Below, in pieces: positions 10,101-36,598 of a stretch of 47,454 nt of DNA (the first letter of the stretch is position 1; every line of letters starts with the position of its first letter). A program made the position numbers and the translations under genes. The notes beneath the pieces were generated by a model. It did not search any database and was not told where the DNA came from. It worked only from the letters and a program-made list of their open reading frames with translations. Source of the DNA: Chromera velia (lineage: Eukaryota; Sar; Chromeraceae); contig JAHBMJ010000431.1 in assembly GCA_018398765.1 (NCBI GenBank), positions 1 through 47,454 of the forward strand. Reading direction: 5' to 3'.

Positions 10101-13100
10101 ACCAAAAAGAGGTGGGGATATTTGCCTGCACACACACATACGAACACATCGACAGGCAGAGCAATCATGTGAAAAGTCCCCAGAACGAGAGGAAGATGAG
10201 GGAGCCGTCCTCAACTGTGGAGGATCTTTCGTTGTCCCTTCAAACCCGGTCTCACTGTGGAGGAAAAACAGACCGTACTGCTAGGCGCACTTCCCCCGTT
10301 TCCCCCCCTTCACAGCCACCTCCCTTCTCTCTTTCCCGACCGACCAACCCAGGGCTCTCTCCAGCACATCCGGAGAAGACGACGAGAGAACGACCACACG
10401 GTTGCGAGGGTCCTCACTCAGACAACGGATCGCAGCCTGCAGTGAGTGAGGCAGAGAGAATTCTCAGATAGAAGATGCAAAAAGAATACGTAAATGTCTA
10501 TTTGTACATATTAACATTGTATAAAGGGTCCTCACTCAGACAACGGATCGCAGCTTGCAGTGAGTGAGGCAGAGAGGGGCGGACCCAGATTAGAGATATA
10601 GAGACTATAAAAACGAAAATTCATTCCAAAGACAGCAACAAAAATGCACGAGGGGAAAGACAACCGATGCAATTGACATCTATACCTCCGACTCACAAGT
10701 ACCCAAAGAAAAAACAAAACACACACATACAGACAGCCAGACAGACAGACAGACCTGTGTGGAGTCAGGCATCCCCATGTGGGAGAAGAGCTCGGGTTCC
10801 AGACCCCCAAATTGCAGAGGGAACATCGTGCCTCTGCAGACAAGCAGGAAGAGATCGAGGCACTGGGAATGAAGCAGGTGCATACATGGTTGTGTGTCGA
10901 GTCTCTCAACAGAAGAAAAGACGATCTGCCTGCTTGACAGTCAACTCAACCAACCAACCGACTGACCTGAATCCCAGGATGAAAAGTCTCCGCGTACACC
11001 TCTTGTACGCGTTCTGCACGGTCTCATGCCTGACTCTCGGGGGCACGCTGACTCTCTCCAACTCTGCGTCCTGGACGGCCTCTCGGAATTCGGAGATCAA
11101 CTGCTCGCCCCACTGCACACGTACACACACAGCAGAGAAGAAAGAAAAAAGGGGAATCAGCGGTTCAAAAAATGAAGTAAGGCGCAGGCAGAAAGAAGAA
11201 AAACAAACCTCCCCATTCTCCACAGAAAAGAAGGTTCCAAGGTTCCGTCTTGTACCCTCCCCTTGTGTCAGTGGGTCAGTGAGTCTCGTCTTTCCCCCCC
11301 TTTTTGAAAGGCAAGCAAGACTTCCGATGCTCATGGAATGTTTCTTTCTGTCAGAGTCAGAGGGTCAGAGGGGTTTTCAGGGCCTCCTCCAGCAATCTGA
11401 TGGACGGCAGAAGAGCGGGCATGGCTGTGAATGTCTTGAAAAAAGGAGCTTTGACAGACGCTTTTATGAGCAGAGAGAGATGCATCCCGAGTTGTCGGCG
11501 TTTATGATTTGCTGTCAAAAACCAAGAGACTTGCTTCGACCGCGACTACCAAACAGGACCCTGACGATCCATCGTACCTTTTGTGCCGTGTGTTTGACGA
11601 CGTATCTGTAAGCGTAGTCGTGCCTCTCGATTTTCTCCTGCAGGCAAACAGAGGGAACAAAACCAGCGGACAAGTGACCAGCCAGAAGAGGGCAAGCAAG
11701 AGAAAAGCTGTAAACATCTGACAAACCAAGACGCATCACGGAAAGAACTGCACCCCTTCCCGCCTACAGATTCACAAACAAAAAAAAGGGACATCCATCC
11801 CCCCTCTCTCGGCAAAATTGCAAGAGACCAACGGGTTCCTTCCGTCTTTCCTACTAGATCACGATGACCACGATTTCCCACACACGTGTTTCATCAGAGT
11901 GTGCACTCTTCCTTTCTTTTCAGAACAACTCCAAACATGCTTAATTTCCCCTCCACCCCCCCACCTGATCAGGCATCTCGAGGGCGTCGAGGATTGACAT
12001 CGCGAACGTGTTGATGTCCCTGAGACCAGGCAGGGGACCACGACACAATAAATAAGTCAACAAATGAATCAAATCGAGCAGCCTGAACAAGCAAGCGTCT
12101 TGTGCCTATGCAGAGGGCACACGAGTTTTTGTCCCCAGACACGCAATTACGTCCACTAGACGGGAACTAGATGTACAGCAAGTGAGTCTCGGGAACGGAG
12201 ACGGTGTTCAAGGCTAAGAAAAAGAAAGCCGCTTGCGATGCAGGCAGCAAATGTGCGAGAGAGTGGTCGGTAAAGCAGGAGAGAGCAGAGACCGACCCAC
12301 CAAGGGTTCACACAGATCGCGGCTGCACCCAAAGACTGGGCAGACCCTGCACCCACAGAGGCAAACAAGCGCACACTCACACATTCAGACACATACACAT
12401 ACAGCCGCGCACGCGCTCAATTCCATCAGTCTCCAAGAGATATAGACAGGCACGCTGACTTTTACTGAAAGGCAAGAAAAGCATTGAGGGATAGATCAGC
12501 TGGGGGAGGGGCCGGGAGACTGACTGACTTACTGACTGACCGGAGAACTCAGAGAGGACGAGGACACCCTTGTTGGTCCTCTGTTGGCATAAAATATATC
12601 TGCGAGGAAAAACAAAACAAAAGGACGAGAGAGACTGTATGGTTAAGGAATGGGAAGGCAGGAAAACAGACACAAGCGAGCAAGACGAGGGAGAGAGGAA
12701 AGAGAAGAAGCAAAGTGTAGGTGCAAAGAAAACTCTCGGAGGAAGGAGCACCAGGCAAAGGAAAGGAAAGGAAAGCAAAGCCCATATAGCTTGCAGAGGC
12801 AAGGAAAAAGTGCAATTAAGGAGATTGTGCCAATTCTGTTCTACACTTACTCATAAGCAGTCCAGCTCAAAGATTCCCTGCACAACAATATACAAACACA
12901 CGAAAGATATGCTGAATGCATTCAACTGCTTTTCTCTCCCTGCTTCGCTGCTTCTTCCATGAACCTACCCACCCACCCCCGACAGATCTATCCGGTAAGG
13001 GAAATTGGTGCTGCAAGGGGTTGGTTGGGGGCCTCTACCCGTACGTAGCAGCTAGGGGAAAGTCAAAGGAACGGAAACGAAAGTTCAATGCGTGCGCAAA

Positions 13101-34671: not shown

Positions 34672-36598
34672 ATGTCCTTCTCGCAGACTCTACTCCTCTC
34701 GTTGGCTGCTTTTGTCCTCTCCAACGCGACACAGGATCAGTTACGCAACCGGTCAAAGGCCTTAGTGCCTTACAGCAAGCCGCCAGCCGAAGCCTCGGAG
34801 TTGCCCCTCGATTCAACACCTGTGCTCCTGCAGAAACTTGAATTGGAAGCGAAGCCCATGACAGTCACAAACCGCTTCCTGCAGAGTCTGACTGTTGACA
34901 AGATCAAGGGCGACGGCTACCTTGGCGGTGGAATGAATGGTGATGTCTTTCAGGTGCACATCAAGAAAGACAGTCGGCCCTATGTCGTGGGCAGTGGCAC
35001 CTACCTTGGTAAGACCCTGGGGACCTGGGGCCGCACCAGGGTTGAGAAGGAGTACTTCGCTCTGAAGTGTTTGCGAAGCAGCGTCGCTGGTGCTATTGAC
35101 ACGAACAAAAAAGAGGAGGCTCGACTCCATCACTGGGTGACGAAGAAGCACGAGTGCTGAGGAACAAATCGCTGTACGTGTTTCCCCACTGTTGTCCCTC
35201 TATTCCACCACTGGTTCACCGAGGAGCTTAAGGCCACTTACCTGAATCCAAGAGTGAACAACGATGCGAAGAAAGAGTGGAACGCGCGTTGGCATGCCGA
35301 CAAAGACGACAAGGCCGAGGCAGTTGTGTACCTCATGGAGCTCCAAGATATGACGGTCAGTTGTGCATGCATTTACTTTCATGCAGAATTCTTTTTCTTT
35401 TTCTTTGTATGAATTCTGTATGAAAGTAAATGCGTGTACCTCATGGAGCTCCAAGATATGACGGTCGGTGCATGCATTTACTTTCATACAGAATTCTTTT
35501 TCTTCTTCTTTGTATGAATTCTGTATGAAAGTAAATGCGTGTACCTCATGGAGCTCCAGGAGATGACGGTCGGTCGGCTCGTCGTGTGCACGTGTTTGTG
35601 GGTGTCGCATTCCTTTTGAAGTCGAAAGTGAGTGGAGCTACTGTGTGTGGATGTCGTGAGGTAGGAGCTCTGTAGGTGTCTCGACTTCATAAACCCCAGA
35701 TACGCAATCCAACAGACAACCTTGTATGCACGCCTTATGCATGCGGCTTCATGCATACATGCTTCCTGTCATACTGTGTTGGTGCGTGAAGGTAAAAGAT
35801 TGGTGGAAAAGCACAGAGCTGACAGGTATGGCCAAAACGGGCGCAGGCAAAGCTGTGCTGTTCATGTTGGCGTTTATTTTGAACTCCCTGGACTGGTGGG
35901 GTATGACGCACAACGATGCCCACTGGACGAATCTGATGGTCAAAAAAATGAAGAACAATGTCGACCCGTGCGACCCTAAAACCAGCAACCAGAACACATG
36001 CACAACCTGGTGCTTCAAATTCCAGGTACGGGGGTGACTCTCAGAGAGACAGACTGGTTTTCATAATCCGGTCACAGCGACTGTCACACCTTTTCAACTC
36101 TTTTATTCCTGTTTCCCTCTTGCATGTTTGTTTCTCTTGCCTTTTTTCCTTCCTGTCCTCATAAACTACCTGTACTGATCTTTCTCTTCGATCTTGCAGG
36201 ACCTGGAGTTCCGACAAGACGAGGATGAAGAGAACGAAGAGTCTCGAGAGGTAGAGGTCGTCAACAAGAGGTGCATTGCCGCCAGCACGATGGAGAACTA
36301 CATGCTGCGTCTGGGGGATTTCGGTAGCACTGTTGCGGGGTTTCCTTCTGCACACAATGGGAACCTTCCCAGTTCCAACACAGCGACGGGAAAGGGAGGG
36401 ATCAATCCATACGCACCGCCAGGCTCGGTGGCAGACAGCTTTGCCCTAAAGCGCCTGTGTGAGTGGTATCTCAAATTGGACAACTGTCCTCAGTCGTAGG
36501 GGACCAACCAGAGATCGTACCTGAACAGCTTCTTCGATGGCATAGAGGTGCAGAGGCCCACGGATAATTCTGCCGTCTGTGAGTTCTCTCATGCGTGA
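34672..36598 (+). pseudogene. Secreted protein kinase-like gene with in-frame TGA and early TAG
   Basis: The ATG at 34672 opens a signal peptide (MSFSQTLLLSLAAFVLSNAT). A kinase fold follows: glycine loop GYLGGGMNGDVFQV, VAIK lysine in FALKCLR, a possible helix-C Glu in EEARLHHW, a hinge-like AVVYLMELQDMT, catalytic loop MTHNDAHWTNLMV (HND for HRD, Asp and Asn present), and LRLGDFGSTVAG. Exons: 34672-35355, 35792-36025 and 36200 onward, joined in phase 0. Two lesions: TGA at 35158-35160 and TAG at 36497-36499. The frame after the TAG still reads like a kinase C-lobe (NSFFDGIEVQRPTDNSAVCE) to TGA 36596-36598. The first might be removed by a small intron starting GTGACG at 35136; otherwise both truncate the protein. 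The signal peptide recalls secreted kinases of apicomplexan relatives, but no specific family is recognised. Confidence 0.7.
35326..35571. mobile_element. Two successive hairpin mini-elements separated by three 33-base direct repeats (locus I)
   Basis: The 33-base segment that ends kinase exon 1 is present three times (35326-35358, 35434-35466, 35539-35571). The first two copies are identical apart from the last base context, and the third has three differences. Between them lie two elements (35359-35433 and 35467-35538). The second has perfect inverted arms of 23 bases (its arms contain TTTACTTTCATACAGAATTC and its complement) around a TTTTTCTTCTTCTTTGTAT loop. The first has one mismatch in the left arm. 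Each repeat copy carries the exon end and a GTC donor. Confidence 0.93.

What the first reader, a model, noticed from the sequence alone, without database searches (positions are those of the whole stretch)
10407..35571. Hairpin mini-elements bracketed by very long direct repeats that copy splice sites
Nine loci in this window have a 26-56 base segment as direct copies around a short spacer: 10407-10576, 13884-14016, 15852-15979, 16514-16604, 17740-17886, 18371-18514, 18822-18952, 27826-27943 and 35326-35571. In five of them the spacer is a hairpin with related arms (ATTTACTTTCATAC or ATTTATTTTCATAC plus AGAATTC). Seven of nine cover an exon edge, in three unrelated genes. Known miniature transposons give target duplications of 2-10 bases, and described introner elements use short ones too, so duplications of 26-52 bases are outside what I know. 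Duplicating the splice site lets the inserted DNA remain part of the intron, which suggests a system of intron growth by insertion at exon boundaries. Whether the element targets exon edges or only survives there is open.
Basis: partly seen in the sequence, partly recalled or inferred. Interest (0 to 1): 0.9.

Follow-up and report, generated by a model that had tools for sequence, protein, structure and literature searches.

The report
Hairpin inserts with giant target duplications
The alga Chromera velia carries tiny hairpin DNA insertions, most of which (among those sampled) sit between two copies of some 20 to 70 bases of the invaded site; where the copied stretch holds a splice site, the insert can be removed with the intron, so a gene can absorb new DNA at an exon edge.

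Summary
The window is from Chromera velia (P0121). All nine loci hold the claimed direct repeats, 13884 being weak on its own. The hairpin arm (19-mer, up to 3 mismatches) occurs 3,243 times in the genome against 65 for the reversed control. Of 93 insertions sampled by arm search, 86 have a long direct repeat, against 15 of 131 random positions. Repeat length varies: median 38 bp ungapped, 45 bp gapped, 5-95% range 24-74. Element ends are ragged. Among 61 joined-flank constructs, one clean paralogous empty site was found, with one repeat copy and no element. In MTHFR the repeat spans a 3' splice site; a C. velia protein, listed also from a transcriptome, uses the downstream copy, while the upstream copy runs into a stop. 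Splice-site motifs lie in 33 of 84 repeats against a 16% baseline, alike in young and old copies. A second hairpin family has long repeats at 9 of 20 loci. Best reading: non-autonomous hairpins placed into widely staggered nicks. The enzyme, and targeting versus survival at exon edges, remain open.

The parts
10407..10576 (.). direct repeat 10407-10458 / 10525-10576 around a 66-base AT-rich spacer without a hairpin; in the TPS/TPP gene (minus strand), probably spanning a 3' splice site
   Evidence: splice site inferred from two P0242 alignments
13884..14016 (.). gapped direct repeat 13884-13909 / 13986-14016 around a hairpin spacer; 3' splice site of a small TPS exon (inferred)
   Evidence: 26/31 identical, spacer fold z -5.4; exon not covered by an alignment
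15852..15979 (.). direct repeat 15852-15894 / 15937-15979 around a 42-base hairpin; covers the 3' splice site of TPS exon RVLGIEC...
   Evidence: fold z -2.6
16511..16604 (.). direct repeat 16511-16546 / 16569-16604 around a 22-base spacer; covers the 5' splice site after TPS exon ...VLAADM
17740..17886 (.). direct repeat 17740-17791 / 17835-17886 around a diverged hairpin; covers a 3' splice site and TPS exon VIVFDYHLMLLPSLIR; the copy nearer the following intron keeps LLP, the other reads LHH
18371..18514 (.). direct repeat 18371-18426 / 18459-18514 in a TPS intron; spacer carries the arm of hairpin family 2 (CCTTGCGTGCGTC)
18822..18952 (.). direct repeat 18822-18866 / 18912-18952 in a TPS intron; AT-rich spacer, no hairpin
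27822..27943 (.). direct repeat 27822-27859 / 27906-27943 around a hairpin (27860-27905); covers the 3' splice site of an MTHFR exon; the downstream acceptor (exon starts 27930) is the one used
   Evidence: fold z -5.7
35326..35571 (.). three copies of a 33-bp repeat (35326, 35434, 35539) around two hairpins; covers the 5' splice site of a kinase-like gene
   Evidence: fold z -9.1 for 35359-35433
7955..19555 (-). host gene: trehalose-6-phosphate synthase/phosphatase, exons aligned in this span
   Evidence: alignment of P0241 and P0242
23008..28832 (+). host gene: methylenetetrahydrofolate reductase, eleven introns tested and reproduced exactly
   Evidence: P0121
34828..36592 (+). host gene: kinase-like, with in-frame stops against its paralogue P0243

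Best explanation
These are non-autonomous, hairpin-forming mini-elements (family 1, and more weakly a second family of different sequence) inserted into C. velia DNA with variable target duplications of mostly 20-70 bp. Shown: a dispersed family; long, variable, locus-specific direct repeats; one clean paralogous empty site with a single repeat copy; ragged and often one-armed elements; use of the downstream acceptor copy in MTHFR. Inferred: the target is nicked on opposite strands some 20-70 nt apart, a hairpin nucleic acid is copied or joined into the gap by machinery acting in trans, and fill-in of the long overhangs makes the repeat. The machinery is most likely of a copying type such as target-primed reverse transcription (about 0.45 for this step). 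When the duplicated stretch holds a splice site, the copy next to the exon body stays functional and the insert plus the other copy become intron, so introns grow at their ends. The repeat+element unit can later multiply into tandem arrays.
For: 86 of 93 arm-sampled insertions have a repeat of score 16 or more, against 15 of 131 random positions; 3,243 arm copies against 65 in the control; variable length, 5-95% range 24-74 in 83 loci; of 80 elements 24 have two good arms, 46 one, 10 none and outer ends are degenerate; no strong target motif; empty site L091/C320; MTHFR junction at 27930 in the downstream copy, upstream copy followed by a stop; splice motifs in 33 of 84 repeats against 15.9%; arrays; a second family with long repeats at 9 of 20 loci.
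Against: No enzyme is tied to the elements. Only 1 clean empty site among 61 constructs, and it is a paralogue, not an allele. L047 is untidy: native sequence lies between the first repeat copy and the element. Most elements keep something like their outer end motif on both sides by eye, which fits a terminal-repeat transposon. Family 2 lacks a repeat at 8 of 20 loci. The loci were chosen by exact arm matches, not at random. Seven of 98 tabulated rows have no repeat above the threshold.
Confidence: 0.6

Rival explanations
1. MITEs of a DDE transposase with an aberrant, long and variable stagger, as described for bacterial IS1549 and IS1634.
For: Inverted arms at both ends in part of the copies; precedent of 8-514 bp direct repeats for IS1549/IS1634 (passage in PMC2266710); one DDE_Tnp_1 match in the genome, on a contig with a hairpin arm.
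Against: Ragged outer ends and 46 of 80 elements with only one good arm; a second family with different arms shows the same kind of repeat; the single PF01609 match is not linked to the elements; other transposase families were not searched.
Confidence: 0.22
2. Host repair of staggered double-strand breaks captures hairpin DNA fragments; no dedicated enzyme.
For: Ragged ends and variable repeats; spacers without a family arm also occur between close repeats, for example 10407 and L022 2144; the staggered-break model is published for Daphnia neointrons (passages of PMC4202315).
Against: A single family with 3,243 arm copies needs a source that multiplies; Daphnia repeats are 4-12 bp.
Confidence: 0.14
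3. The repeats are ordinary tandem duplications or minisatellites that happen to contain hairpins.
For: Tandem arrays of repeat+element units exist; 13 of 76 repeats in the scan are multi-copy without an exact arm.
Against: Arms are shared between loci while repeats are locus-specific; 86 of 93 against 15 of 131; the paralogue lacks the element and the second copy together.
Confidence: 0.04

Closest known systems
Introner elements (PMC9860276 and PMC7789003; passages read)
   Same: Short dispersed elements, often with inverted repeats and flanking direct repeats, that end up within introns and can take splice sites from the duplicated target
   Different: Their TSDs are given as 3-9 bp and, in Amoebophrya, 3-5 nt; here mostly 20-70 bp; here existing splice sites are duplicated and introns lengthened, and no new intron is proven
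MITEs (short TIR elements of DDE transposons)
   Same: Small, non-coding, dispersed, inverted arms, hairpin potential
   Different: MITE TSDs are short and of fixed length for a family (10-15 bp or less in the passage; general rule recalled); here length varies, ends are ragged and many copies are one-armed
Bacterial IS1549 and IS1634 (PMC2266710, passages)
   Same: Long, variable direct repeats on insertion, 8-514 bp, without an accepted model
   Different: Bacterial, 1.5-2 kb, encode a transposase; no such gene is tied to the hairpins
LINE-mobilised SINEs, e.g. EhSINE1 of Entamoeba (PMC2996970, passages)
   Same: Variable TSDs, 18-24 bp in most of the youngest class, up to 29 bp in its table
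   Different: EhSINE1 is about 500-600 bp; here 30-100 bp hairpins, repeats longer, no linked LINE shown
Daphnia neointrons from staggered breaks (PMC4202315, passages) and direct repeats near introns (PMC11782384, abstract and outline)
   Same: Direct repeats at intron borders, staggered breaks proposed
   Different: Repeats 4-12 bp, and 4-30 bp (mean 11.4); no shared hairpin family in what I saw

Membership tests
MITE | Terminal inverted repeats at both ends | tested here: inconclusive
   24 of 80 elements have two good arms, 46 one, 10 none at my threshold
MITE | Short target duplication of fixed length | tested here: not met
   83 loci, 5-95% range 24-74 bp
MITE | Autonomous partner with the same ends | tested here: inconclusive
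   Two opposed-arm pairs 0.7 and 2.8 kb apart proved to be separate insertions; arm listings were capped at 100 places
Introner | Creates a new intron at its insertion site | tested here: inconclusive
   MTHFR, TPS and kinase-like cases sit at ends of existing introns; L091 lies inside an exon, splicing unknown
Introner | Many related copies in introns of unrelated genes | tested here: met
   Three genes in the window and splice motifs in 33 of 84 repeats; full gene models were not available
LINE-mobilised SINE | Variable target duplication | tested here: met
LINE-mobilised SINE | 3' tail or 3' end shared with a LINE | tested here: inconclusive
   A-rich tails at a few junctions only; a reverse-transcriptase family is present but its ends were not mapped
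IS1549/IS1634 | Long variable direct repeats | tested here: met
   precedent
IS1549/IS1634 | Encodes an IS4-like DDE transposase | tested here: not met
   Median element 62 bp; a partner in trans is not excluded: one PF01609 match in the genome

The most novel reading that the evidence does not exclude
Chromera velia has, or recently had, an insertion pathway that nicks DNA 20-70 nt apart, prefers exon-intron junctions of both kinds, and copies hairpin donors of more than one family into the gap. It thereby duplicates splice sites and makes introns grow stepwise: a route to intron expansion distinct from introners and from transposition with a fixed stagger.
Probability: 0.33. Interest if true: 0.92.

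Novelty: new variant of a known kind. Interest (0 to 1): 0.75.

Why it matters
Eukaryotic mini-elements are expected to leave short target duplications. A family whose sampled copies mostly carry 20-70 bp duplications points to an unusual integration chemistry with, as far as I found, only a bacterial precedent and shorter SINE cases. Since the duplicated stretch often holds a splice site, it gives a concrete way for introns to lengthen without loss of coding sequence. The two repeat copies let each insertion be dated. How introns grow becomes testable in a culturable relative of apicomplexans.

Tried and rejected
Autonomous partner with the same ends: two opposed-arm pairs 0.7 and 2.8 kb apart turned out to be four separate insertions. 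TGCAG formed by the element end plus a target G as the cause of 3'-site enrichment: G follows TGCA at 10 of 71 junctions, and 5' sites are enriched too. Strong target motif: none, only weak TGC. Rfam families: no match in 11 sources. Empty sites among loci already fetched: none seen. Other non-self matches of the joined flanks: L070 against C775 and L021 against C1825 cover one side only, L047 against C1968 is untidy, and two matches of 74-76% on C24 lie in the same gene region as L015. A generic splice-site matrix (recalled, not from a call) gave 33% of 85 against 14-29% at windows shifted by 80 or more. I replaced it by motifs chosen after reading 11 exact junctions of one gene, so one search is not a blind test; its shifted windows are not independent and the p values are a guide only. 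Five of 25 3'-site hits sit at the very start of the repeat, where the element end TGCA could contribute. Younger and older insertions do not differ (14 of 34 against 19 of 50, Fisher p 0.82): this speaks against slow survival bias, not against immediate loss of harmful insertions. The shuffle control was useless (simple repeats) and was replaced; one search was too strict and was replaced. Other transposase families, a survey of reverse transcriptases, structure prediction and supplements of papers were not tried. Papers: search listings; passages; abstract and outline. No paper was read whole.
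Full report
Organism. The window is contig C430 of a genome of 177.8 Mb in 4,040 contigs. Its MTHFR gene matches protein P0121, which UniRef names Chromera velia CCMP2878; 606 aa, listed also from MMETSP (a transcriptome source) and EukProt. I did not see the transcript itself. 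The eleven introns tested are reproduced exactly by spliced alignment, ten with GT-AG and one with GC-AG ends; 9 of 11 acceptors read TGCAG.

Observation. All nine loci have direct repeats of the stated order. Spacers at 27860-27908, 35359-35433 and 15895-15936 fold with z -5.7, -9.1 and -2.6; L070, L005, L107, L105 and L013 give -11.9, -12.6, -6.6, -4.9 and -2.1. A scan of 186 kb found 36 close repeats against 0 in a shuffled copy; its complexity filter missed some known loci and some of the 36 are ordinary repeats.

Genome-wide. The 14-mer ATTTAYTTTCATAC has 900 hits against 7 for the reversed pattern; the 19-mer with up to 3 mismatches 3,243 against 65. I tabulated 98 insertions, 93 found by arm search and 5 window loci added by hand; a few rows are neighbouring units of one array. 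A direct repeat of score 16 or more flanks 91 of 98, or 86 of 93 without the hand-added ones; 15 of 131 random positions in the same loci reach that score. Ungapped median length of the 91 is 38; the longest values come from arrays. With gaps, 83 loci have median 45, 5-95% range 24-74, extremes 19 and 102, and median identity 0.94. A scan of 237 kb not tied to exact arms found 76 close repeats: 35 hold an exact arm; of 28 other single pairs 11 have partial arms, 2 family-2 arms and 15 neither; 13 are multi-copy. The regions were chosen by arm hits, so I give no genome-wide density.

Anatomy. Consensus by eye: TGCATGCATTTAYTTTCATACAGAATTC, a variable centre, and the inverted arm. Element length has median 62, 10-90% range 39-89 (which includes one array and the double locus 35326). 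Of 80 elements 24 have two good arms, 46 one and 10 none, although each was chosen for at least one exact arm stretch. Outer ends are degenerate, and centres often repeat pieces of the arms. Tandem arrays occur, for example nine 64-bp units (L039) and 24 hits at 119-bp steps, with one gap, on C3687.

Second family. The 18371 spacer carries CCTTGCGTGCGTC. CCTTGCGTGCGTCA has 185 hits against 0, and the 100 places listed include seven opposed pairs 20-63 bases apart. Of 20 fetched loci 9 have a repeat of score 16 or more (L115 is low-complexity and L119 tandem-like), three have weaker repeats of 16-21 bp and eight none. The link is weaker than in family 1.

Empty site. Joined flanks of 61 insertions were searched (38). 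Non-self matches touched five of them. One is clean: L091 bases 3-225 align to C320 131-343 and 283-384 to 303-404, so C320 has one repeat copy and no element. The L091 copies differ at 1 of 45 bases and each from C320 at 3, read by eye, so the insertion is derived. L070 and L021 match on one side only; L015 2843 has two matches of 74-76% within its own gene region that cover left flank and repeat, or part of it; L047 is untidy, with native sequence between the first copy and the element.

Splice sites. In MTHFR one exon ends at 27561 and the next starts at 27930, inside the downstream copy; reading on from the upstream copy gives a stop within the element. In TPS, P0241 and P0242 place 3' sites in 15852 and 17740 and a 5' site in 16514; at 17740 the two copies read LLP and LHH, and the conserved LLP copy is the one nearer the next intron. 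P0243 places a 5' site in 35326. 10407 and 13884 are inferred. Genome-wide, motifs taken from C. velia junctions lie in 33 of 84 repeats against 15.9% in windows shifted by 80 bp or more (5' sites 14 of 84 against 6.7%, 3' sites 20 of 84 against 9.6%); without window loci 28 of 76 against 16.4%. The share is 14 of 34 in repeats at least 97.5% identical and 19 of 50 in the rest. L091 lies inside an exon, 19 nt from the original acceptor by eye; how it is spliced is unknown.

Mechanism. Variable length, ragged ends and two donor families of different sequence argue against a cut-and-paste enzyme with a fixed stagger. The simplest model is nicking of opposite strands tens of bases apart, copying or joining of a hairpin nucleic acid, and fill-in. 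A reverse-transcriptase-like family (named by motif, recalled) has 41 matches at 94-100%, a lower bound, but is not linked to the elements. A DDE enzyme with an aberrant stagger and break repair remain open; the one PF01609 match is on a contig that also has an arm.

Known systems. Introner TSDs 3-9 bp and 3-5 nt; Daphnia neointrons 4-12 bp; EhSINE1 mostly 18-24 bp in its youngest class; repeats near introns 4-30 bp, mean 11.4; IS1549 and IS1634 8-514 bp. The Chromera genome paper gives about 30 Mb of transposable elements (passages only). The searches returned no paper describing such elements in Chromera; only open-access papers are held and no supplements were read, so this is not proof that none exists.

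Noticed in passing
window 34828-36592: The kinase-like gene has in-frame stops where its C. velia paralogue P0243 reads through; it may be a pseudogene.
   Followed up: no
window 1-1608: Part of a reverse-transcriptase-like repeat (by motif) with 41 matches at 94-100% in the genome, one of them followed by a second partial copy.
   Followed up: partly
G000 contig C3687:11288-14611: 24 hairpin-arm hits at 119-base steps with one gap: a long tandem array.
   Followed up: no
G000 contig C1614:9885-10028: Six family-2 arms at 26-base steps, a compact array.
   Followed up: no
L022 2144-2270: Perfect 40-bp direct repeat around a 47-base spacer without a known arm or a fold better than shuffles.
   Followed up: no
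L015 2521-2774: Tandem units of an AT-rich insert with a 44-bp repeat that contains TGCAG; perhaps another insert family.
   Followed up: no
L047 and L122 (C1968): Paralogue comparison shows native sequence between the first repeat copy and the element, so some insertions are more complex than element plus duplication.
   Followed up: partly
G000 contig C4035:4214-4597: Only DDE_Tnp_1 (PF01609) match in the genome, on a contig that also has a hairpin arm at 29848.
   Followed up: no
window 46180-46376: Perfect 34-bp direct repeat 163 bases apart inside a repetitive open frame, probably a coding repeat.
   Followed up: no
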